Positions 48,127 to 63,744 of a stretch of DNA of 64,000 nucleotides are shown in pieces. Each line of letters begins with the position of its first letter. The first letter of the stretch is position 1. The position numbers were made by a program, and so were the translations under genes. Source of the DNA: Onthophagus taurus (taxonomy: Eukaryota > Arthropoda > Insecta > Coleoptera > Scarabaeidae); contig NC_091967.1 in NCBI RefSeq assembly GCF_036711975.1, forward strand, positions 29,985,501 to 30,049,500, in the 5' to 3' direction. The notes below the pieces were generated by a model. The model did no database searches and was not told the DNA's origin. It saw only the letters and a list, made by a program, of their open reading frames with translations.

Positions 48127-49170
48127 GAGTAACACCACTGTAGAATTAAAAAAAAAATCATTTTTTTTTATTGGCTTTAAAGATGCTTGACACCTTATAG
48201 AATAAGAAGAAAACAATTGTATATTTGTACACAATATTACATTATTACACTGATTATATACCAATCAGGAACACTCCGTAACTACATACAGCATTTGAAT
48301 CATCTTAGAATAGCATCAGCACGTGTACACGAAGGACGTGAATATTTCGTAGACTAAAAACGCGAGTTCTATTGTGTAGTGTTTTGAATCGATTTTTCTC
48401 AAATTATTTGTAGTTGAAGTGATTTCTAGTATTACAATGAGTGACAGTAGTATAGATTCGCCGATTCAAGAACCTCCTCCTCGAACCTGCGTTCTAGGAG
48501 GAGGTTCTTGAATCGGCAAATTTTTTGGGGGTCAGAGGAGGTTCGATGAGGAGAGGAGGTTCTTGAATCGGCGATTCTTTTGAGGGTCGGAGGAGATTCG
48601 ATGAAGAGAGGAGGAGGTCAATTAACTTGAGAAGGTCATGTTATTTTGACGAAATTATTAAAAATTTATCTTTATTAAAAATGTATCTTTATTAAAAATG
48701 TATCTTTATTAAAAATGTATCTTTATTTAGGTTATGTTATTAAAAATTTATCTTTATATGTAACCTGTTTACCTAGATGAAAACAATTACTATGTTTATC
48801 CTTCGACGCTTCTCAATGAACTGGTAATGTTTTCGATATATCTCTTAACTTATTGTACACAAAGGTATACGGTTTTGGGACATGTAGGTATACAAATAAG
48901 TGAGTCATGATCTACCTGCGGGATATTTTTTAAAATTTATTGTGTAAAGGTATACGGAGCTTTAAAATATGCGAGGAGGTTCTTGAATCGGCAAATTTTT
49001 TGGGGGGATACGTTCGAGGAGGAGGTCAATTAACTTAATACTAGTAAGTGAGTCATGATCTACCTGCGAGATATTTTTTAATTTATTATGCAGAGGTATA
49101 CGGAGTTATAAATATACATGTATACAAACGCACTCGATGCATCCTCCTCCTCCCCAATAAGTTTCAGGAG
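48127..49170. repeat. Left terminal region with hairpin and direct repeats
   Basis: Non-coding. Holds a perfect 22-bp inverted repeat (48460-48481 / 48496-48517, 14-nt loop). The arm word GAGGTTCTTGAATCGGC recurs at 48554-48572 and 48972-48992. A 17-bp tandem repeat ATTAAAAATGTATCTTT lies at 48658-48760. Paired direct repeats GTGAGTCATGATCTACCTGC (48900, 49048) and GGAGGTCAATTAACTT (48609, 49020) are also present. It probably includes the left TIR and cis-acting replication or packaging sites. Only comparison with the right end could delimit the TIR. Confidence 0.65.
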
Positions 49171-49256: not shown

Positions 49257-52200
49257 ATGGTCGTGTGTGAGGATTGTGGAAAAAGTTTTACTCGAGTTGA
49301 CAATTTAAAAAGACATCAACGATTATCTTGTATTGGCAAGAGAATCAAGCTTGACGCACCGCAAATTCCAAAAGCAGTAAAATGTGAGGCTTGCGATGAT
49401 TATGTAAATAGACAATGTTACTCTGCACATTTACGAAGCAACGCACACAAGCGTAACGCTTTTGTTATAATCGATGACGGAGTGGAGAGAATAGCTGGAG
49501 CATTCGGTGACAAAATTGTCAGTTATCGAATAAGTGAAGAAGGTTTTTTTGTGGATTTGGATGAATTTTCTCATAGAATTCGAGAAAAAATACTAAATCT
49601 AATACAAAGCGCAATCGATATTCACCGAAATGTAAAATTAAATATGGAATGTTTTGGTTTGTATTTTTTACAATCAAAGGAAGACTGTGAAATAAAATCA
49701 TTTAATACGAAAAATAAGGTAGTATCATTAGCGTCGGATCTGTATAAAATATATAAGGAATTTATTGATGAAATTTCATCAAAAATGTCAGAATTCCAGG
49801 AACGAGATTCAGGTAAGCGTAATGTGACATAATATACCTATATATTAAAAAATAAATGTTTCAATATTTTATTTAGGATGGACTTTAATGCAAATTCTCT
49901 ATATGGAGTTAAATTTAAACAAATATAATCCTATCAGAGCATCTAATTACATCGATCTACCATCGCAAATAAAAGCAAAGCGTGCTGTGATAAATATACA
50001 AAACGCGGATGATGCATGTTTTGCATGGGCTGTAACATCCGCACTACATGAACCGAACGGTTTACCACAGAGGACATCTTCGTATCCGAATTACCTAGAC
50101 TGCGGCTTAGACTATTCAAATATTGTTTTTCCAGTTAAATTACGAGATATACCTGTATTTGAAAAGCAGAACAAACTATCTATTAATGTATATGGAATAA
50201 ATGAGTATTTTAAAGACGGTGTTATGAATTATGACATAATTACAATGTATATATGTCGACAAAAAGAAGAAAGACATATAAATTTATTATTGGTTACAAA
50301 TGATTCCGGGAATAGTCACTATTGTTGGATAAAAAATCTGTCTCGATTACTATCATCGCAAGCATCGCAGAATGGTCATGAAAAGTATATTTGCGACGGA
50401 TGCTTGGTATTCTTTACGTCAGAAAATAAACTTATCCGTCATCAAAGTGACGATTGCAGCAAGGTAAGGGCAATTTTACCAACAACAAATTTGAAAATAA
50501 ATAAATATGGAAATGAAGAAAAGGAAAATATACTACAGTTCGAAAATTTTGAACGACAATTAAAAATACCGTTCGTGGTGTATGCAGATTTTGAAGCATT
50601 ACAGAAACCGATCACCGATGCGGAAGCAACAGAACTTAACGATGATAATTCATACTCCGTCAAATGTTTCAAACACGAACCTTATGCATTTGCATATTAT
50701 ATAAAATGTTCATATGACGAATCATTGTCGAAGTTTGAAATATATCGCGGATGTAATGCTGCTCAAATTTTCATGAGCAAGTTGGAACATGACGTTCTGA
50801 ATATATACAAAAATTATTTAAGCCAACCAAAAGAAATGCTCCCATTACCACCTATTGATAGATTAATACATGAGATGCAGGATATCTGTCACATTTGTTC
50901 GCACAAAATAAAGGAAGGTAATAAAGTGTGCGATCATGATCACCTAACTGGGTTGTATAGAGGACCCGCACATGCTGTATGTAACATCAATTATCAATTA
51001 CCAAAGTTCATACCGATATTCTTTCACAATCTTTCGAACTACGATTGTCATATGTTTGTGAAAGATATGGCATTAAAAGAAGAAGACGTGGACGTTATAG
51101 CACAGAATAAAGAAAAGTATATATCATTTTCGAAAAAAATTATCGTAGGAGAAAACATTGACAGCAAGGGAAAGCTAAGGCGGGTTCATATGAAATTGAG
51201 ATTTGTGGATTCATTTAGGTTTATGGCTTTATCGCTAGAGAAGTTGGGTTCATTTTTGGAAGACAACCAATGCGTTCAAATCAGAAAATATTTTAGGAAC
51301 GAAGAACAGTTTCGACTTATACGTCAGAAAGGAGTTTTTCCGTATTCCTTTGTGGATTCATTCGAAAAGCTGAATCTTACCGCTCTGCCAGATCGAAGTA
51401 GTTTTTACAATACTTTATGCGACGATAGTATAACCGAAGAAAATTATTGTCGTGCACAAACGGTGTGGAACTTATTTAACTGTCGCACTTTAGGCGAATA
51501 TAGCGACATTTATTTAACGTCTGACGTTTTACTTTTGGCGGACGTATTTGAGAATTTCCGAACCATCTCGATGAAGTATTACTCTTTAGATCCATGTCAT
51601 TACTTCACAGCGCCGGGCTTCGGTTGGGATGCATTATTACGAATGACAGGGGTAAAATTAGAATTATTAACGGACATAGACATGTTACACTTCTTTAAAA
51701 ATGGTATTCGCGGTGGATTAAGTATGTGCACTAAACGCAGTGCGAAGGCTAACAATAAATTAATGATGGAATTTGATGAAACCAAAGACCCATCTTATAT
51801 TTTGTATCTCGACGCTACGAATTTGTATGGACACGCAATGAGACGAAAATTACCGACGGGGGGATTTCGATGGCTATCAGATGAAGAGATTCAAAAGTTA
51901 GATATTTACAATACGGAAGACGATTCCGAAAAGGGTTACGTGTTCGAGGTAGATTTAGAGTATCCGGAAGCAATACATGATGAACACAACGATTTGCCAT
52001 TTTGTCCAGAACGGATTGTACCCCCAGGTTCAAAAAATGCAAAGTTAATAGCAAATTTGGAAAATAAAACAAAATACATCATTCATTACGTGAATCTAAA
52101 GCAGTGTATCAAGTTCGGATTGAAACTAACGAAGATTTACAGAGTATTAGAATTTAAACAATCCAACTGGATGCGGAGCTACATCGATTTCAATTCCGAT

Positions 52201-53049
52201 AAACGTGCGAAAGCTAAGAATGAATTTGAAAAAAATCATTACAAAGCAATGAATAACATCGTATACGGTAAGACAATGGAAAATGTGGAAAAGCGAGTGG
52301 ATATAAGACTAGTTACCCACTGGGAATGTCGTCATAAGAAACCGGGCGTGGAAGCCCTAATAGCTAAACCAAATTTTAAATCTTCGAAAATATTTTGCGA
52401 TAATTTGATAGCCGTTCAATTGAACGTCGCGGAAGTTCGTTATTGCAAACCGCTGTATGTGGGTTTCAGTATATTAGAGCTTTCGAAAACCGTAATGTAC
52501 AGCTTCTTCTATGATTACTTAAAACTTAAATATGGAAATAACATAACACTTTTATACACCGATACTGATTCCCTAATCCTAGAAATTACTACTCCCAATG
52601 TATATGAGGATATAAAAGAAAATATTGAATTTTTTGACACGTCCAATTATCCGTTAGAGAATATACACAATATACCTCGCGGTCGATCTGTGTTGGGAAG
52701 AATGAAAGATGAATATCCAAACAGGTGCATAACGTCATTTGTTGGAACAGGAGCTAAGGCGTACTGCATCACCTTGTTGAATGATAATGTAAAGAAGGCT
52801 AAAGGAGTAAAGAAATATGTTATAGATAAACATTTAAGCGTGACCGATTATAAACGTGTGGTTGAATGTGGCGGATCGGTTCATAAAAAAATGTACATTT
52901 TTAAGTCAGAATTTCATACTATGTATACCGAATTAAAGAATAAAATTGCTCTTTCATCGTGCGATGATAAACGATACATATTACCGAACGGATGTAATAC
53001 TTTGGCGTGGGGTCATTGGTTGATAAAAAGATTGAATGCGAATAAATGA
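49257..53049 (+). CDS. polB: Protein-primed family-B DNA polymerase, two exons
   Basis: Replicates the element's linear DNA by protein priming. Exon 1 (49257-49812) encodes two C2H2-type fingers (CEDCGKSFTRVDNLKRHQ; CEACDDYVNR...HLRSNAHK) and ends in EFQERDS. A 64-nt intron (GTAAGC...TTTAG, 49813-49876) is phase 1 and restores the frame into the second exon, for a product of about 1242 aa. Exon 2 landmarks, counted from its ATG at 49888: another finger (CDGCLVFF, ~170), exonuclease ExoI (VVYADFEAL, ~230), CHIC...CDHDH zinc site (~334-352), NYDCHMFVKDM (~384), motif A YLDATNLYG (~640), motif B NNIVYGKTMEN (~789) and motif C YTDTDSL (~890). All key catalytic residues are present and no stops occur. 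It is the only plus-strand gene of the element. A poly(A) signal follows at 53112. Confidence 0.92.
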
Positions 53050-53151: not shown

Positions 53152-54087
53152 TTAAAGAACGTTAGTTTTTGAGATCCAAGAATTATGAGACGGACCTAAT
53201 CCTAACCATTTCACAAACACTTGATTTCCTTTTCGCCGTAGCACTTTTTCCACCAAGTAGACGTCAGGATATTTAACTTTTTGTAATTCCTCTCGATAAA
53301 AACCACCCATAATTTTTTCATTGGATGCATCTTTGAGCAGATATGTTGTTGGGAAAGTATTACGAACAGAATGTATTGTAAACACTTCGTTAGACCAATT
53401 GGGAGTATAGTTTTTGGTGAAGGCGTGTCGATGCTTGCTCACTCTGACGTGATCACCGACATTAAATTTTTTGGTATAAGGATCGACAATTTTTATGTAA
53501 TTATATACAGTTTTTAACAGTGTCGATGCGTTTCTGTTATTTACCTCGCTAGGTTTCATTCCTATCGTCCTGTGAACTTGGTTGTTATAATCCAGAATTA
53601 ATTTGGGAAGCAATTCCAACCAACGATAGTTACCTTGCATACTAAATTCTTTCCACATTTTTTCTTTTATTGTTCTATTAAACCGTTCAACAATAGAACT
53701 CTTTAAATTGGAAAATGAACTGTAGTGATTGATGTGATATCGTGACATGAGCTTTTTAAAATCCTCATTGTAAAATTCTTTTCCGTTATCCGTTTGCAGA
53801 TTCTTCGGTATGTTTTTCCGCTTTTCCGATAGAATTGTTTCCATAGCTCGCGTAACTTCTTTGCCAGTTTTGTTTTTTAGTGGTACAGCCCATCCATACT
53901 TTGAGAAAGCATTAATAACTGTTAGAATATATTTAAAATTACCATTTGCTTTTGAATAAGGTATCATCTCCACTAAATCAGCTTGAAATAAGTCCGTTAA
54001 ACCTTTTATAATAACACGTCTGCGTTTATACTTTTTCCTCGCGGACGCGTGCAACTCGTTTACGACGGACCTTTTAATATCGCTCAT
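53152..54087 (-). CDS. int: Maverick integrase with C-terminal chromodomain
   Basis: A retroviral-type integrase (rve fold) that inserts the element into chromosomes. Of 311 residues, the catalytic triad is D37 (LFQADLVEM), D100 (LQTDNGKEF) and E134 (SSIVERFNRT), 33 residues apart for the last pair. A GDHVRVSKHRHAFTKNYTPNWS block (~215-236) resembles the SH3-like DNA-binding region of Maverick integrases. Residues ~272-311 (YLVEKVLRRKGNQVFVKWLG) form a chromodomain, which in related retroelements directs insertion to particular histone marks. No separate N-terminal HHCC zinc finger is evident in the ATG-initiated frame, which is shorter than some Maverick integrases. Its ATG overlaps the stop of the upstream gene (ATGA), suggesting coupled translation. 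Confidence 0.92.
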   Translation of the reverse strand: MSDIKRSVVNELHASARKKYKRRRVIIKGLTDLFQADLVEMIPYSKANGNFKYILTVINAFSKYGWAVPLKNKTGKEVTRAMETILSEKRKNIPKNLQTDNGKEFYNEDFKKLMSRYHINHYSSFSNLKSSIVERFNRTIKEKMWKEFSMQGNYRWLELLPKLILDYNNQVHRTIGMKPSEVNNRNASTLLKTVYNYIKIVDPYTKKFNVGDHVRVSKHRHAFTKNYTPNWSNEVFTIHSVRNTFPTTYLLKDASNEKIMGGFYREELQKVKYPDVYLVEKVLRRKGNQVFVKWLGLGPSHNSWISKTNVL

Positions 54088-54509
54088 TTTCTGGATATTT
54101 CAATGAGCAGTTCTACCATAAATGGTTTCTTGAGTAAAGTGGTCTTCGTTGTGGGTTTGCAAACTATTTTATCTCCAAAGAAGAGAACATTTAACTTTTT
54201 ATTTGGATCGAAGATACTCCCGTTAATAATCATTTCAACGTCTCCTTCAAATCGGTATTTCACTATTTCACCAATATATAAATAGTTTATATATTTACTT
54301 ACGTAACCTAAATTTTGAATAATGTAATAATTATCCGTTGTATCCGTAGTTCCATCTCCGCTAAACGTAAGTATTGTTGGTTGTTTGAAATATCGTTGTA
54401 AGTTTTCACGTTTATTAAAATGAGCAGCAATGTTGTGTCCGTGTACGTGTTTACCAAACTTATCGATCGTCATACTAGACGAATGTTTTCCGAACTTGCT
54501 TAAACTCAT
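54084..54509 (-). CDS. Conserved Maverick small protein of unknown function (141 aa)
   Basis: Not assigned to a family. It begins with two related hexapeptides, SKFGKH and DKFGKH, followed by a probably beta-rich domain (TNNYYIIQ-like, LYIGEIVKYRF, LNVLFFGDKIV). No transmembrane segment is seen. Small proteins with an N-terminal KxGKH pattern occur in other insect Mavericks, as far as I recall. The stop codon shares bases with the integrase start (ATGA), placing both on one transcript. A virion or spike-associated role is only a guess. Confidence 0.75.
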   Translation of the reverse strand: MSLSKFGKHSSSMTIDKFGKHVHGHNIAAHFNKRENLQRYFKQPTILTFSGDGTTDTTDNYYIIQNLGYVSKYINYLYIGEIVKYRFEGDVEMIINGSIFDPNKKLNVLFFGDKIVCKPTTKTTLLKKPFMVELLIEISRK

Positions 54510-55793: not shown

Positions 55794-56498
55794 TTAAACT
55801 TCAATGAATTTATCAAAACCCTTACGGTAACGTCCCTTAGATACACTAAAATCTAAATCAATAACTAGGATGCCGTGTCTATTCTCCCAACAAGCATCGC
55901 TAATTTCCTTTAGCCGATGAAACTCCATATCGCTCATTATGTGATCTTCAAATACGTGTTTTAAATTTGTTAAGTCTTGTTTAAATAACACCAAAAAGTT
56001 ACAATTATCGCGAACTAATTGTTTTGGAATTGCACTATAACTTTGACAAATTAGAAAACAATCAATGTTTTTATGTCGACCATACGAAAAAAATTCCTTA
56101 ATGACATTTTGACCTGTACAGGAAACATCGTCAAATACGACTACCGAATATTCTTTCGCATCTTCCGGTCGAATGAACTCGTCTATATTAGAAAATTCAT
56201 AGTAACCGCAATCTTTTATAGGTTCAATTAAACGTCTTAAAAAATCGTACTTATTTTGGTATAACGAATTGGAGCATAAGTATAAGTTTAGGAAGCGGAG
56301 GCCATTACGTGCAAGTAAAAGCGATAACATAGCATTTGTTTTTCCGACACCAGAGGGTCCTACAATTAAACCTCGCTTACATTTTCCACCAAATAAATTG
56401 CTGTGTCTTGTAAAGTGTTCTTCGACCGAACCATTACTAAAATTTACTATAGGCAGTGTTAGAAGTTGCGGTAGACATTTTAATTTCTCGTCGATCAT
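55794..56498 (-). CDS. FtsK/HerA-type genome-packaging ATPase
   Basis: Powers packaging of element DNA into capsids, as in adenovirus-like and PRD1-like viruses. Walker A is GPSGVGKT at residues 47-54 and Walker B VVVFDDVS at about 119-126. A downstream FLICQSYSAIPKQLVRDN (~150-168) contains the Q and R residues typical of A32-like packaging ATPases (sensor/arginine region). The length, 234 aa, is normal for the group. No signal peptide or membrane segment. It is transcribed leftward with the 387-aa gene 51 bp downstream. Confidence 0.9.
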   Translation of the reverse strand: MIDEKLKCLPQLLTLPIVNFSNGSVEEHFTRHSNLFGGKCKRGLIVGPSGVGKTNAMLSLLLARNGLRFLNLYLCSNSLYQNKYDFLRRLIEPIKDCGYYEFSNIDEFIRPEDAKEYSVVVFDDVSCTGQNVIKEFFSYGRHKNIDCFLICQSYSAIPKQLVRDNCNFLVLFKQDLTNLKHVFEDHIMSDMEFHRLKEISDACWENRHGILVIDLDFSVSKGRYRKGFDKFIEV

Positions 56499-60213: not shown

Positions 60214-61473
60214 CTATATTAATTGCTTAACCATTTTCGTAAGAGGCGAATACACAAATGCTCTGTCATGCAGAATTAATGCGTAAGCTGTCGTACCTTC
60301 CGGAATTGGATTTTTCGTTGAATACTCGATTTTTATTTCTACTCCGCTTTTATGTATTGCTTCCTGTTGATACGTGCAATCGATTCCAATTAACGGCGCG
60401 TAAGTTTTAAATTCTTCCGGTGAAAACAAAGGTTCGCTTTCTTGATAGTAGTATGCTTGCTGAAATCTTGAATACATATCATACAAAATCGCATAGTGAT
60501 TGTTATCAAAATCCACATTCAAATTATCGTACGGAAAACGTTCTCCATTCAAGAAAACCGTTACGTTCGTTAAGTTTATATTATCAAATAATGCCATGTT
60601 TCCTTTAAATATACCCTTTCGATTTGTTTGAAATCCGATGATTATAAATCTAGGCGTTTCCAATTGTGGAGCAGTTTTGACGGCCCAAGATTGCTTCGTA
60701 GTTTGAGGTAATTGAGGGTACTCGTGTATTTCCCACGATCGAAAAGGAACGTGAATGTCTACGTTTCTTTCTGATAGTTTTGTTAATGCCAACTGTTCGC
60801 GTAATCCCACCGCCACGTGAGGAACTCTCCATATAATTTTATTAATGATCAATTTCAATTTTTCGTCGTTCGGAGCGGCTGCTGGTTGAAAGATGACGTC
60901 CGTATCATCGTGTTCGCGAATTAGCACAAGTTCCTGTCGAACGTTCATCATGATCTTTCTGAAATCTTCTGCGAATCCTAGCAACGATTTTAGCGGAACG
61001 CTAAGACCGAAATTTCCATTTTTATCTAAAGCCTTTGAAACACCCGCTATATCATCTTTCCAAGGTTTTATGTGCCAACCGGCGTTCGCTAATTTCACCA
61101 CCTCGTTCTGTGTAGATGAGAAATAACCCTTCATGCATGAGCTTATACCGACGTTCCGCACACCATCAACATGTACTCCGTTAATAAGATATCGAATATC
61201 GCTAAACATAAATGCAACGGGATTGTTAACCAATTGCCCCGTGGCGCTGGCATCTTTTGTTATACTTCCGTCCGCGGCTAACTTACGAACGCTACCCTCG
61301 ACGTATAGATAACTCTCGCTCGGTAAAGTATAATTATCTATTTCCGGAATTGAAATTCTAATTTCGTCATTGTTATCGAACGTGGTCGATCCAAACGGTT
61401 GATGCGAATGGAATTCATAACTTACGATAGAGTGATCTGTTTTTATCTTATCCGTTACTTTTAAAATGTCCAT
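60214..61473 (-). CDS. mcp: Major capsid protein (double jelly-roll)
   Basis: Of 419 residues, the length, gene order and sequence pattern match the Polinton double jelly-roll major capsid protein that builds the icosahedral shell. Landmarks: an N-terminal strand DHSIVSYEFHSHQPFG, SESYLYVEGSV (~53-63), FSDIRYLINGVHVDGVRNVG, the inter-barrel segment with WRVPHVAV (~213), then RFIIIGFQTNRKG (~285) and TVFLNGERFPYDNLNVDF (~314), a typical second-barrel motif, and a C-terminal ALILHDRAFVY. No stops or indels. Its ATG overlaps the stop of the preceding small basic gene as TAATG, a known termination-reinitiation signal in other systems. Confidence 0.9.
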   Translation of the reverse strand: MDILKVTDKIKTDHSIVSYEFHSHQPFGSTTFDNNDEIRISIPEIDNYTLPSESYLYVEGSVRKLAADGSITKDASATGQLVNNPVAFMFSDIRYLINGVHVDGVRNVGISSCMKGYFSSTQNEVVKLANAGWHIKPWKDDIAGVSKALDKNGNFGLSVPLKSLLGFAEDFRKIMMNVRQELVLIREHDDTDVIFQPAAAPNDEKLKLIINKIIWRVPHVAVGLREQLALTKLSERNVDIHVPFRSWEIHEYPQLPQTTKQSWAVKTAPQLETPRFIIIGFQTNRKGIFKGNMALFDNINLTNVTVFLNGERFPYDNLNVDFDNNHYAILYDMYSRFQQAYYYQESEPLFSPEEFKTYAPLIGIDCTYQQEAIHKSGVEIKIEYSTKNPIPEGTTAYALILHDRAFVYSPLTKMVKQLI

Positions 61474-61664
61474 TACTTTAACACTTCGTATCCTAACTGA
61501 ACTAAATACCTTCGATTGACTGGTGATAATCGATGAATGGATCGTCTTCTACTGCCGCTACGTTGACTGATGACGCGCGCTTTATAGTTTTCTCCATTAA
61601 ACAATTTTCTCGCTCTGTCTCTTCTTGACCACCGCATTCTTTTGTTTTGATATAACACTGTCAT
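61473..61664 (-). CDS. Small basic protein (63 aa)
   Basis: The first ATG is at 61664 (MTVLYQNKRMRWSRRDRARK). The 5' part of the frame lacks an ATG. Highly Arg/Lys-rich with a C-terminal RLSPVNRRYLVQLGYEV motif (NxxxLxxLG), seen in small proteins next to the MCP in other Polintons as far as I recall. Could bind DNA inside the virion. Begins 24 nt after the penton stop and ends overlapping the MCP start by one base. Confidence 0.65.
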   Translation of the reverse strand: MTVLYQNKRMRWSRRDRARKLFNGENYKARVISQRSGSRRRSIHRLSPVNRRYLVQLGYEVLK

Positions 61665-61687: not shown

Positions 61688-62419
61688 TCAATTTATCGAT
61701 CTCAGGTGAACTCTCACTGTTATTTCTTCTTCTCTGAAGTCTACCAAGTTTCCGTCCTGATCAAGTATACGTACTGTTAAGCTACTAATCACGTTCGTTA
61801 AAACCGGTAAATAAATAGGTAGTTGTGGTGATTCGATTATTTTAAAACCTGCCGGAACGTTTGGGAAAAAATGATATAAAACGTGCACGGGAACTCCGTT
61901 ATTATACGATCCCGTCACTAAATTACAATAAATTTGTAAGGCGTTCGTTTTATTTATGTTTACTACGAAATCGGATTCCACTTCCGTATCTCTAGGTAAT
62001 ATTTGAGGCTTGAAGCCAAGTAACGGCCCTATAGAATTATCGCATGCAAAATTAATTCGACGGGTACTTTTTATTAAAGAATGTTGTGTGTTATTATTCC
62101 CCTTAATCCTTATTACGACACTTTTAGCGTGTCTTTTGTCTAGCTGTTCATTCACGAACTCGGCAATATCATCAATATCGTACGTTCCAACAGGTACTAT
62201 TATATTGTTTTTAAAATGTCCTGTCTTATCTTCGTATTGGATTACGTTGTTGTTTTTATTAACGTTTGCTAAACTATTAAACGTTTCGAAATTCAAAAGA
62301 GCCAACTCGTAACTACCAAATTCGTTCAAATAGATCGGAGGATTAAAATTACAAGTCAATTCAGATGACTTTCCAGTCAACGTAAATGTATATGTCGTGT
62401 GTATTGCTTCTTTCTCCAT
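61688..62419 (-). CDS. Penton/minor capsid protein (single jelly-roll)
   Basis: 243 aa. Matches the Polinton penton-type minor capsid protein by position (next to the MCP) and pattern: ELTCNFNPPIYLNEFGSYELAL at ~19-40, FETFNSLANVN, VPVGTYDIDDIAEFVNEQL (~77-95), and GPLLGFKPQILPRDT (~130), followed by C-terminal strands (LTVRILDQDGNLVDF). Forms vertex capsomers as pentamers in related viruses. Open frame with a verified ATG at 62419. Confidence 0.85.
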   Translation of the reverse strand: MEKEAIHTTYTFTLTGKSSELTCNFNPPIYLNEFGSYELALLNFETFNSLANVNKNNNVIQYEDKTGHFKNNIIVPVGTYDIDDIAEFVNEQLDKRHAKSVVIRIKGNNNTQHSLIKSTRRINFACDNSIGPLLGFKPQILPRDTEVESDFVVNINKTNALQIYCNLVTGSYNNGVPVHVLYHFFPNVPAGFKIIESPQLPIYLPVLTNVISSLTVRILDQDGNLVDFREEEITVRVHLRSIN

Positions 62420-62449: not shown

Positions 62450-62839
62450 CTAATAGGTTCTTTTATTACTTAGAAACTTCAGACACAACTGTCCGCAATT
62501 TTGATCTATTTCTCTTTGATATCGACAGTAATTATACTTTACTTGACCACCCCTACCGTCTGACAACAAATATTGTTCAATTTCTAATGGCGGTCTTAAA
62601 TCACCGTAACTGTCGAAATAGTATATGTCCTTGTCGTCTTTCTTATAGGCGACCCAATGAGTCCCTCGTCCTTTCAAGTTATCCAAGTTAACAATACCTC
62701 TTTCCTTCTTTTTAATCTTACTCGGGAGATTGTCTCTCATAAATATACCCCGAAAATGTGGAATTTTTAGTACTTTCGCAAACTTTTCCAACTCGACGTT
62801 AGTTAACGCACGACGAGGTATTCGAACTAGTTTTTTGAA
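62450..62839 (-). CDS. pro: Adenain-type cysteine protease, probably reached by -1 frameshift
   Basis: A maturation protease of the adenovirus protease family (C5-like). The catalytic triad is visible: His in GTHWVAYKK, Asp/Glu-type position in YYFDSYGDL and Cys in QNCGQLCLKFL, with the Gln of the oxyanion hole in the same segment. There is no ATG between the upstream stop (62842) and the conserved core; the first codon usually called (62791) is TTG, and the conserved N-terminal ALTNVELEKF lies upstream of it. The frame is -1 relative to the PLA2 gene and overlaps its end at a slippery heptamer. It is best read as a C-terminal extension of that protein, released by its own cleavage. Independent translation from a non-AUG codon or an undetected spliced mRNA are alternatives. 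Confidence 0.85.
   Translation of the reverse strand, partial: FKKLVRIPRRALTNVELEKFAKVLKIPHFRGIFMRDNLPSKIKKKERGIVNLDNLKGRGTHWVAYKKDDKDIYYFDSYGDLRPPLEIEQYLLSDGRGGQVKYNYCRYQREIDQNCGQLCLKFLSNKRTY
62792..62836 (-). promoter_or_regulatory. Candidate -1 programmed frameshift site
   Basis: The PLA2 frame ends ...TCA AAA AAC TAG. The heptamer A AAA AAC (62836-62830) has the canonical X XXY YYZ form in the correct phase, and a slip of -1 places ribosomes exactly in the protease frame, avoiding the TAG at 62829-62827. Twelve bases downstream, a small stem-loop can form at 62817-62792 (CTCG/CGAG, T-T mismatch, CGT/ACG, 10-nt loop), weaker and a little farther away than typical stimulators. Confidence 0.7.
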
Positions 62840-63744
62840 CTAGTGGTTATACCGCAACCTTTCTTATAGGGCTTATTGAAGTAACCTGTGCCGCCAACAT
62901 TATTCCCCTTTCCTTCAATAAACAAACCGCAACCTTTCTTATATGGTTTTATATAAAATCCGCTACCTACGGCCTTTGCTTCCATAGCCTTGTTATGTCT
63001 TCGTTCTTCATCTAATTGCTCTCTAGCTGTTTTCGCGTTGTTTATAGTTCTTGCAATAGCGGCAGCACCACCGCCGATACTACCTAGGGCACCTAAAGCT
63101 GCGAACAGGGGAATTAAAGGTAAAAATCCTCCCGTTTTCGGAATTCGAATAACTCGACCTCTAGGTTCGGAAATTCTTTTTCTTATCTTTTTCAAAGCTC
63201 CGTATGCCGCTTTAACGTTTGTCAACAAATTCTTAGCACCTGATCTCGATATTGCGTTGCGAGCGAATCGAAGTGCATCTACAAAAGATATAGCTCCACC
63301 ACGCTTTACACGCGTTCGGACTTTTTTTAAAGGTCGTCGACCCGTACGATTTCTTTTTCTACCTACGCCCATACCGACCGCTACTTTTGCTTTCATTAAG
63401 GCGGCAACTGCGGACGATGCCACTTTTTCTCCAAGAGTAGACTCTTTATTTCGTATTCGTTCTTTCGCTGCTTTATATAATGCTCTGTCTGCGTCGTGTC
63501 TAAATTTTAAATTTGAACTGACCGTATATGCTATATCGTGTTTCTTACACGCTTCGTCTAATGGATTCACGCCTCGATCTCCTCTCGATAATCTCTTTTC
63601 CAACTTGGTACCCGGTCCACAAAAATTATATCCTGGCAAATGAAGTTCTATCGGAAGTTTATCTATCAACTTGTTAAAAAATCCTCGACCAATTCGTTTG
63701 CCTGTCAAACGATAACTGTTACGATTAGGTTCTAACAAATTCAT
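62827..63744 (-). CDS. PLA2-domain/pVI-like minor capsid protein
   Basis: 305 aa. Residues ~35-100 form a parvovirus-type secreted phospholipase A2 domain: calcium-loop-like YNFCGPGTKL, catalytic His-Asp in DEACKKHDIAY and a second Asp/Arg in FRHDADRAL. Such domains breach endosomal membranes during virus entry. A very basic stretch (GRKRNRTGRRPLKKVRTRVKRGG, ~125-150; about 20 residues) probably binds DNA. FLPLIPLFAALGALGSIGGG (~207-226) is a hydrophobic, possibly amphipathic, pVI-like segment, followed by a helical linker. Two C-terminal repeats of a (Y/F)xKPYKKGCG motif end the protein, with a sequence IEGK-G between them that fits the adenain cleavage pattern (M/I/L)XGX-G. The protease frame continues by -1 shift. 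Confidence 0.85.
   Translation of the reverse strand: MNLLEPNRNSYRLTGKRIGRGFFNKLIDKLPIELHLPGYNFCGPGTKLEKRLSRGDRGVNPLDEACKKHDIAYTVSSNLKFRHDADRALYKAAKERIRNKESTLGEKVASSAVAALMKAKVAVGMGVGRKRNRTGRRPLKKVRTRVKRGGAISFVDALRFARNAISRSGAKNLLTNVKAAYGALKKIRKRISEPRGRVIRIPKTGGFLPLIPLFAALGALGSIGGGAAAIARTINNAKTAREQLDEERRHNKAMEAKAVGSGFYIKPYKKGCGLFIEGKGNNVGGTGYFNKPYKKGCGITTSSKN

What the first reader, a model, noticed from the sequence alone, without database searches (positions are those of the whole stretch)
62792..62842. -1 programmed frameshift joins a PLA2 minor capsid protein to the adenain-type protease
Seen: the PLA2 frame terminates as TCA AAA AAC TAG, a textbook A AAA AAC heptamer in the right phase with the stop immediately after it. 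The protease frame is exactly -1, overlaps it, and has no ATG before its conserved N-terminal region. Known: retroviruses and coronaviruses use this heptamer class to append enzymes to structural proteins. Inference: this element expresses its maturation protease as a frameshift extension of a virion protein, which would place one protease per few PLA2 proteins inside the capsid. I do not know of this device having been described for Mavericks.
Basis: partly seen in the sequence, partly recalled or inferred. Interest (0 to 1): 0.9.

Follow-up and report, generated by a model that had tools for sequence, protein, structure and literature searches.

The report
Maverick protease made by ribosomal frameshifting
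In this virus-like Maverick element of a beetle genome, the capsid-maturation protease has no start codon of its own and is very probably made when ribosomes slip back one base at the end of a minor capsid gene, a retrovirus-like trick that many related insect elements appear to share.

Summary
On the minus strand the PLA2 ORF ends TCA AAA AAC TAG; A AAA AAC lies at 62830-62836, and the protease ORF is exactly -1 with no ATG before its conserved core. The host genome (probably Onthophagus taurus) holds at least 150 protease hits in about 13 subfamilies. Of 122 junctions examined, 107 keep an in-phase heptamer leading openly into the protease: 81 A AAA AAC, 26 T TTT TTA. Of the other 15, 13 are disrupted copies (11 still hold the heptamer letters) and two are lineage E, with an ATGA stop/start overlap instead. 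One subfamily's protease ORF has no methionine. Protease dN/dS is 0.10-0.20 in 7 pairs. In database relatives 114 of the 120 listed PLA2 proteins end with the heptamer's K-N footprint; 7 of 13 contig-length-matched PLA2/protease pairs overlap in the -1 register; in-frame fusions exist. Best explanation: -1 frameshifting appends the protease to the PLA2 minor capsid protein. Against: no RNA or protein data; downstream structure significant in only 2 of 11 subfamilies; 63 of 120 database proteases have an ATG near the junction. A 2024 preprint suggested a related Hexon-Adenain frameshift.

The parts
62827..63744 (-). PLA2-type minor capsid protein gene (zero frame), 305 aa: parvovirus-VP1-like PLA2 domain, hydrophobic GGFLPLIP domain, C-terminal KPYKKGCG repeats, ends ...SSKN*
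   Evidence: ORF; Pfam PF08398 E=1.2e-12; profile matches PDB chains named 'Capsid protein' E=1.7e-4 (that these are parvovirus capsids is recalled from the entry codes)
62830..62836 (-). slippery heptamer A AAA AAC, in phase (TCA AAA AAC), stop codon directly after it
62827..62829 (-). PLA2 stop codon TAG
62840..62842 (-). stop codon TAG that opens the -1 frame, so the -1 frame cannot be entered from upstream
62450..62839 (-). -1 frame: adenain-like cysteine protease (His61, Asp76, Gln108, Cys115 of the ORF), no ATG before the conserved core
   Evidence: model mean pLDDT 89.4; profile matches cysteine protease S273R E=4.9e-4 and adenain E=0.0063
62746..62820 (-). possible long-range 7-bp stem starting 9 nt after the heptamer (62820-62814 with 62752-62746); B has a 6-bp stem at the corresponding place; weak here
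   Evidence: 5.8% of shuffles as good for A, 0.8% for B; codon-shuffle z -0.03 for A; not chosen by the alignment fold
61688..62419 (-). downstream gene with its own ATG; penton-like by position and recall, no convincing Pfam match
60214..61473 (-). double jelly-roll major capsid protein
   Evidence: PF21738 E=4.4e-101; ATG at 61473
55794..56498 (-). A32-like packaging ATPase
   Evidence: PF04665 E=7.7e-9
53152..54087 (-). rve integrase with chromodomain
   Evidence: PF00665 E=4.5e-12, PF00385 E=4e-5 just below its cut-off
49888..53049 (+). protein-primed PolB candidate (named from motifs DATNLYG and YTDTDS by recall; Pfam gave only Endonuclease_7)
48446..49115 (.). left terminal inverted repeat; partner lies beyond the window end at window-scale 65438-66021

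Best explanation
Ribosomes translating the PLA2 minor capsid gene reach A AAA AAC just before its stop codon. Most terminate and give the 305-aa PLA2 protein; a minority slip back one base, re-read AAA AAA, and continue in the -1 frame, adding the adenain-like protease to the C-terminus of the PLA2 protein. Shown here: the heptamer, its phase, the ATG-less conserved protease frame, purifying selection on that frame, conservation of the heptamer across subfamilies and of its footprint in other insects, and the use of another heptamer class (T TTT TTA) at the same junction in D/D2. Inferred: that slippage happens, its efficiency, and that the fusion carries the protease into assembling capsids and is later cleaved.
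For: (1) 107 of 122 junctions from the host genome keep an in-phase heptamer with an open -1 frame. (2) Five C-subfamily pairs have dS above 1 (saturated) yet keep AAA AAC exactly; protease dN/dS 0.10-0.20 in the 7 pairs that gave an estimate (A/B did not: dS infinite). (3) The heptamer persists when the PLA2 stop lies 0, 3, 15 or 39-48 nt downstream. (4) D/D2 use T TTT TTA at the same junction. (5) Subfamily G (L122, 137 aa) has no Met anywhere in the protease ORF. (6) K-N in the last seven residues of 114 of 120 listed PLA2 relatives; the residue before it can have a codon ending in A in 114 of 114; 91 of 114 further relatives. (7) 7 of 13 contig-length-matched PLA2/protease pairs are encodable together in the -1 register (0 of 13 in the other register, 0 of 700 shuffled tails, 27 of 1575 unmatched natural pairs); six force NNA AAA AA(C/T). 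(8) PLA2-protease proteins in one frame exist in relatives. (9) F has a 15-bp hairpin exactly 9 nt after the heptamer, z about -7; B a stem 10 nt after it, 0.8% of shuffles as good.
Against: No expression, ribosome-profiling or mass-spectrometry data. Folding of the 100 nt after the heptamer beats codon-preserving shuffles in only 2 of 11 subfamilies (B and F; the other 9, the window's A among them, do not); no H-type pseudoknot met my criteria in any of 11. 63 of 120 listed database protease relatives start with a Met just before the conserved core, five of them on contigs of the same length as K-N-ending PLA2 proteins, so in them ordinary or re-initiated starts are possible. Single copies in heptamer families also carry a Met upstream (L053, L067). 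19 of 114 relatives in the second search lack K-N without being flagged as fusions (one of them, P0354, is a fusion by reading). No DNA from other species could be read.
Confidence: 0.86

Rival explanations
1. Termination-reinitiation or a separate start: the protease is made from its own start codon at or just after the PLA2 stop (stop/start overlap), and the A-rich stretch is only a favourable start context.
For: E (L065, L119) has ATGA and no heptamer; P0085/P0320 has its own ATG and no K-N; 63 of 120 listed database proteases start just before the conserved core; ATGA and TAATG stop/start overlaps occur at the INT and major capsid starts of the same element.
Against: No ATG before the conserved core in the representatives of A, B, C1-C5, D, D2, F; no Met at all in G. 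No near-cognate codon is shared by all families (A and B share an ATA, four of five C subfamilies an AGG). Does not explain the fixed phase and codons of the heptamer or T TTT TTA in its place.
Confidence: 0.07
2. Transcriptional slippage: RNA polymerase adds a base in the A or T run, and the edited mRNA encodes the fusion in frame.
For: Runs of 6-7 A or 7 T are present at the representatives' junctions, and a one-base insertion would give the same fusion.
Against: Such runs are short for eukaryotic polymerases (recall); the codons are AAA AAC in 9 of 9 A-type subfamilies, and the preceding residue allows an NNA codon in 114 of 114 relatives, as ribosomal tandem slippage requires but polymerase slippage does not.
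Confidence: 0.04
3. An intron removes the PLA2 stop or supplies an upstream ATG to the protease.
For: Cannot be excluded without RNA data; GTRAG donors exist upstream in 4 of 11 subfamilies.
Against: No GTRAG donor within 400 nt upstream in 7 of 11 subfamilies, no YAG acceptor at the junction in C4 and G, no rich polypyrimidine tract (at most 10 of 15).
Confidence: 0.02
4. The protease is a decayed gene that lost its ATG and the heptamer is coincidence.
For: Some subfamily copies (of C, D and E) have broken PLA2 frames.
Against: dN/dS 0.10-0.20, catalytic positions conserved in 66 of 66 aligned proteins except one Asp, 31 genomic hits with identical protease, same state in 11 subfamilies.
Confidence: 0.01

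Closest known systems
Retroviral/retrotransposon gag-pro(-pol) -1 frameshift (A AAA AAC or U UUU UUA heptamers)
   Same: Structural protein in zero frame, maturation protease appended in -1 frame, heptamers of the same classes (HIV-1 U UUU UUA seen in the listed abstract of PMC4373837; the A AAA AAC class is recalled).
   Different: DNA element with jelly-roll capsid; cysteine adenain-type protease, not aspartic; structural partner is a PLA2 minor capsid protein; no stimulatory structure common to the subfamilies found.
Predicted adintovirus Penton isoforms and Hexon-Adenain ('Hexain') -1 frameshift (PMC11071296, section 16)
   Same: Same virus group, same idea of a -1 frameshift fusing a capsid protein to adenain.
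   Different: There the partner is the major capsid protein (Hexon) and the support given in that section is KnotInFrame prediction; here it is PLA2, with conservation, selection and cross-species footprint evidence. I did not see its sequences.
Insect Mavericks of Spodoptera cells (PMC5803895, passages)
   Same: Same CAP (PLA2) and PRO genes.
   Different: The 12 passages shown do not describe frameshifting between CAP and PRO; the frameshift passages concern errantiviruses.
Adenovirus adenain and protein X
   Same: Related protease by weak profile matches; hydrophobic GGFLPLIP domain resembles protein X (weak, E=0.09).
   Different: Adenain has its own start and is not a fusion (recalled).

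Membership tests
Canonical -1 programmed ribosomal frameshift site | In-phase X XXY YYZ heptamer at the end of the zero frame | tested here: met
   107 of 122 junctions
Canonical -1 programmed ribosomal frameshift site | Overlapping -1 ORF under purifying selection and without a usable start | tested here: met
   dN/dS 0.10-0.20 in 7 pairs; no ATG before the core in the A-D, F representatives; no Met in G. Not true of E nor of many database relatives
Canonical -1 programmed ribosomal frameshift site | Stimulatory structure a few nt downstream | tested here: inconclusive
   Clear in F (15 bp, 9 nt spacing) and significant in B (stem from 10 nt); not in 9 of 11
Canonical -1 programmed ribosomal frameshift site | Measured frameshift product | not testable with these tools
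   needs reporter, ribosome profiling or mass spectrometry
Maverick/Polinton (adintovirus, Eupolintoviridae) | DJR capsid, packaging ATPase, rve integrase | tested here: met
Maverick/Polinton (adintovirus, Eupolintoviridae) | Terminal inverted repeats | tested here: met
   (longest two pieces at 90-97% identity; right repeat lies outside the window)
Maverick/Polinton (adintovirus, Eupolintoviridae) | Protein-primed PolB | tested here: inconclusive
   1066-aa ORF with PolB-like motifs by eye; Pfam gave only Endonuclease_7
Adenain-type cysteine protease (C5) | His-Asp/Glu-Gln-Cys constellation | tested here: met
   His 66/66, Asp 65/66, Gln 66/66, Cys 66/66; equivalence to adenain's residues is by recall
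Adenain-type cysteine protease (C5) | Sequence or fold match to adenain | tested here: inconclusive
Parvovirus-like PLA2 capsid protein | PLA2 domain | tested here: met
   PF08398 E=1.2e-12; PDB 'Capsid protein' chains E=1.7e-4

The most novel reading that the evidence does not exclude
Translational tethering of the maturation protease to the PLA2 minor capsid protein is a general and old device of insect Mavericks: -1 frameshifting at A AAA AAC is the widespread state, repeatedly replaced by T TTT TTA, by true in-frame fusion, or by a stop/start overlap with its own ATG. It would be a gag-pro-like packaging strategy in the polintovirus/adenovirus lineage, and would explain how these capsids acquire the protease.
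Probability: 0.55. Interest if true: 0.85.

Novelty: new variant of a known kind. Interest (0 to 1): 0.74.

Why it matters
If true, Mavericks express an essential virion enzyme by a recoding device best known from retroviruses and RNA viruses. It predicts a PLA2-protease polyprotein in particles that had not been observed as of the vertebrate Maverick survey (abstract of PMC8097293), tells gene finders to look for an ATG-less protease, and links protease dosage to a minor capsid protein. At least 150 copies in one beetle genome make it directly testable.

Tried and rejected
Viral contigs and genome-contig scans gave no relatives, so other-species evidence is protein-level only. A general stimulatory RNA structure was sought by dinucleotide shuffles, stem and pseudoknot enumeration, a four-row alignment fold of A and B and codon shuffles: only B and F stand out; the A/B long-range stem was not what the alignment fold chose. 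Splicing was examined by motif scan only. Considered and dropped: an adenain consensus cleavage site at the junction (pattern recalled, looked at by eye only, no consistent match). The protease tree (50 rows, 16 of 47 inner branches well supported) places heptamer-bearing rows on both sides and needs 6 changes for 6 fusion rows; no ancestral state is claimed.

Selection of copies: the first search scored 150 of 265 candidates. Family A gave 31 full-length hits identical in protein (the window's included) and 35 at 85-100%; I fetched all 35, 3 of the 30 other identical ones and 2 of 3 more degraded relatives. Of the B, C, D, F families I fetched a part. L001-L008 were delivered but not counted. 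The 122 are L009-L129 plus the window, all of them counted. The 11 representatives leave out E (no heptamer) and H (one altered copy). Database lists are the best 120 of 2810, 1973 and 296.

Full report
What is there. On the minus strand of the window a 305-aa PLA2-type protein (ATG at 63744) ends ...ACT AGT TCA AAA AAC TAG. The heptamer A AAA AAC occupies 62836-62830. The next ORF, 62839-62450, is exactly in the -1 frame, opens directly after an in-frame TAG, and runs FKKLVRIPRRALTNVELEKF.... Its first Met is residue 34, inside the conserved FRGIFM strand. The protease was modelled at mean pLDDT 89.4, carries His61, Asp76, Gln108 and Cys115, conserved in 66, 65, 66 and 66 of 66 aligned proteins, and its family profile reaches cysteine protease S273R (E=4.9e-4) and adenain (E=0.0063) among solved structures; a fold search could not be run. 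The surrounding genes (rve integrase with chromodomain, A32-like ATPase, DJR capsid) and terminal inverted repeats at 48446-49115 and, beyond the window, at 65438-66021 make it a Maverick of roughly 17.6 kb.

Host. Contig lengths of G000 (C2 30,797,615; C11 34,988,216) equal those of database records named Onthophagus taurus (P0121, P0122, P0126). The host is therefore probably that dung beetle; this is inference.

Copies in the same genome. A protease search scored 150 of 265 candidates, and further queries revealed subfamilies that I name A (window), B, C1-C5, D, D2, E, F, G and H. I examined 122 junctions (L009-L129 and the window). In 107 an in-phase heptamer leads without stop into the protease: AAAAAAC in 81, TTTTTTA in 26; in 101 of the 107 the PLA2 frame is open for at least 30 codons upstream, in six it is not (L074, L091, L104, L120, L127, L128). 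Two of those six, L104 and L120, have the PLA2 tail in the protease's own frame through a local frame change. Of the other 15, two are lineage E (L065 and L119). Thirteen are disrupted copies of heptamer families: L023 has lost 13 nt including the heptamer and L121 has a shortened A run, while in L032, L041, L042, L043, L044, L045, L062, L063, L123, L124 and L126 the heptamer letters survive but a deletion, insertion, nonsense change or altered run breaks the path into the protease.

Why the heptamer looks selected. The junction forms are TCA AAA AAC TAG (A), GCA or ACA AAA AAC TAA (B), CAA AAA AAC TTN TAA or TAG (C1-C5), TCA AAA AAC with the stop 15 nt on (F), AGA AAA AAC TAA (G) and GTT TTT TTA with the stop 39-48 nt on (D, D2). 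Protease dN/dS is 0.10-0.20 for the seven pairs that gave an estimate; A/B gave none (dS infinite). For C1/C3, C1/C4, C2/C4, C3/C4 and C1/C5 dS exceeds 1, so silent sites are randomised, yet AAA AAC is unchanged. AAC is only 30% of Asn codons in these genes; the nominal chance of AAA AAC at all nine K-N sites is 9e-7, overstated because subfamilies are related. Elsewhere in the PLA2 frames of the 11 representatives the two heptamers occur in phase 3 times in 2547 codon positions.

No other start. No ATG precedes the conserved core in the representatives of A, B, C1-C5, D, D2 and F. Near-cognate codons occur, but none is shared by all: A and B share an ATA, four of five C subfamilies an AGG. 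Single copies can differ: L053 (B) and L067 (D) carry a Met upstream. In G the whole 137-aa protease ORF has no Met; G rests on one intact copy, L122, and one rearranged copy, L123. GTRAG splice donors are absent within 400 nt upstream in 7 of 11 subfamilies and present in 4; acceptors at the junction are absent in C4 and G.

The exception. E has no heptamer at the junction, and its PLA2 stop overlaps an ATG of the protease frame (ACACAATGAAAAG). Among database pairs, P0085/P0320 is alike: no K-N, and its own ATG in the -1 overlap. So in the two heptamer-less lineages where both genes can be seen, an ATG is present.

Other species, protein level. The viral and prokaryotic DNA collections gave no relatives. 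Among the 120 best of 1973 PLA2 relatives, 114 have K-N within seven residues of the C-terminus (32 end in it, 53 have one and 27 two residues after it, 2 have five); a few of the 120 are O. taurus proteins themselves. The residue before K-N has a codon ending in A available in 114 of 114, against 82% of residues overall. In a second search (best 120 of 296), of 114 further proteins 91 have it; 23 do not, of which the script flagged 4 as PLA2-protease fusions and I read a fifth, P0354. Seven of the 13 are jointly encodable with 9-15 overlapping codons in the -1 register, none in the other; shuffled tails 0 of 700, unmatched natural pairs 27 of 1575. In six of the seven the solution forces NNA AAA AA(C/T), in two of these AAC.

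Fusions. P0241 (named Lucilia cuprina), P0251 (Temnothorax), P0265, P0354 and P0260 (Brassicogethes), and the shorter P0098 and P0111, join a PLA2 protein or its tail to the protease in one frame. Those on chromosome-scale contigs (P0241, P0251, P0260) may owe the join to gene prediction; P0265, P0354, P0098 and P0111 come from contigs of about 2-3 kb. On a protease tree six fusion rows need six changes, so they look like separate events, though many forks are weak. A true fusion in relatives suggests that the fused product is functional.

Against. Folding downstream of the heptamer beats codon shuffles in F (15-bp hairpin, 9 nt spacing, z about -7 by dinucleotide shuffle, 1 of 300 codon shuffles as low) and in B (1 of 300; a 6-bp stem starts 10 nt after the heptamer, 0.8% of block shuffles as good); 9 of 11 subfamilies do not. 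A has a 7-bp stem at the place corresponding to B's (5.8% of shuffles as good), but the A+B alignment fold did not choose it. No H-type pseudoknot met my criteria. Efficiency may therefore be low in most. The database probably favours proteins with a start codon, so this share may be biased upward.

Mechanism. The best-supported reading is canonical -1 tandem slippage of the ribosome on A AAA AAC (or T TTT TTA), making a PLA2-protease fusion as a minority of PLA2 synthesis. That the fusion delivers the protease into particles, and is then cut free, is inference by analogy with gag-pro.

Literature. Searches for frameshifting in Mavericks, Polintons or adintoviruses brought up one related statement: PMC11071296 suggests slippery sequences in adintovirus Penton genes and 'a similar relationship' for potential Hexon-Adenain fusions (section 16 read whole). 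No paper in the library holds both 'Polinton' and 'programmed ribosomal frameshifting'. Passages only were seen of PMC5803895, PMC8097293, PMC12567637 and PMC4028283; other listed papers were seen as listings. The adintovirus founding paper is not held, so prior description there cannot be excluded.

Mended after checking: the major capsid start overlap is TAATG, not TGATG; L119 is a second E copy, so 13 not 14 copies are disrupted; only L023 shows the repeat-to-repeat deletion; B's stem position; the A/B dN/dS gap; the chosen nature of the 11 representatives (and re-reading). None of these changes the odds.

Noticed in passing
window 62824-62844 (-); L023: The heptamer sits between and partly inside two copies of ACTAGTTC; one degraded copy (L023) has lost one repeat and the A run between them, as recombination between the repeats would do.
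   Followed up: partly
window 54084-54099 (-) and 61471-61475 (-): Other gene starts in the element overlap the preceding stop: INT ATG in AAAATGA, and the major capsid ATG in TAATG after a 63-aa basic ORF (61473-61664) of unknown function lying between the penton-like and capsid genes; that ORF has no Pfam match at E 0.01.
   Followed up: partly
G000, for example C2, C8, C11: The beetle genome carries very many Maverick proteases (150 of 265 candidates scored), 31 of them identical in protein, suggesting recent activity.
   Followed up: partly
L068, L072, L077, L079 (subfamily D): The D copies translated in three frames keep the PLA2 C-terminal domain, heptamer and protease, but the N-terminal PLA2 domain is not seen in the roughly 1.2 kb upstream; the sequence there is repeated and non-coding, as if a shortened element had multiplied.
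   Followed up: no
L107-L110: A 15-bp hairpin, z about -7, lies inside protease coding sequence 9 nt after the heptamer.
   Followed up: yes
window 62827-63744 (-): The PLA2 protein tail carries repeated KPYKKGCG motifs with a cysteine in A and (with variation) B and a leucine (KKGLG) in C, D and F; role unknown, perhaps protease cofactor by loose analogy with adenovirus pVI (recalled).
   Followed up: no
P0351: A Maverick PLA2 protein is recorded under an Enterobacter cloacae complex name, probably insect DNA contamination.
   Followed up: no
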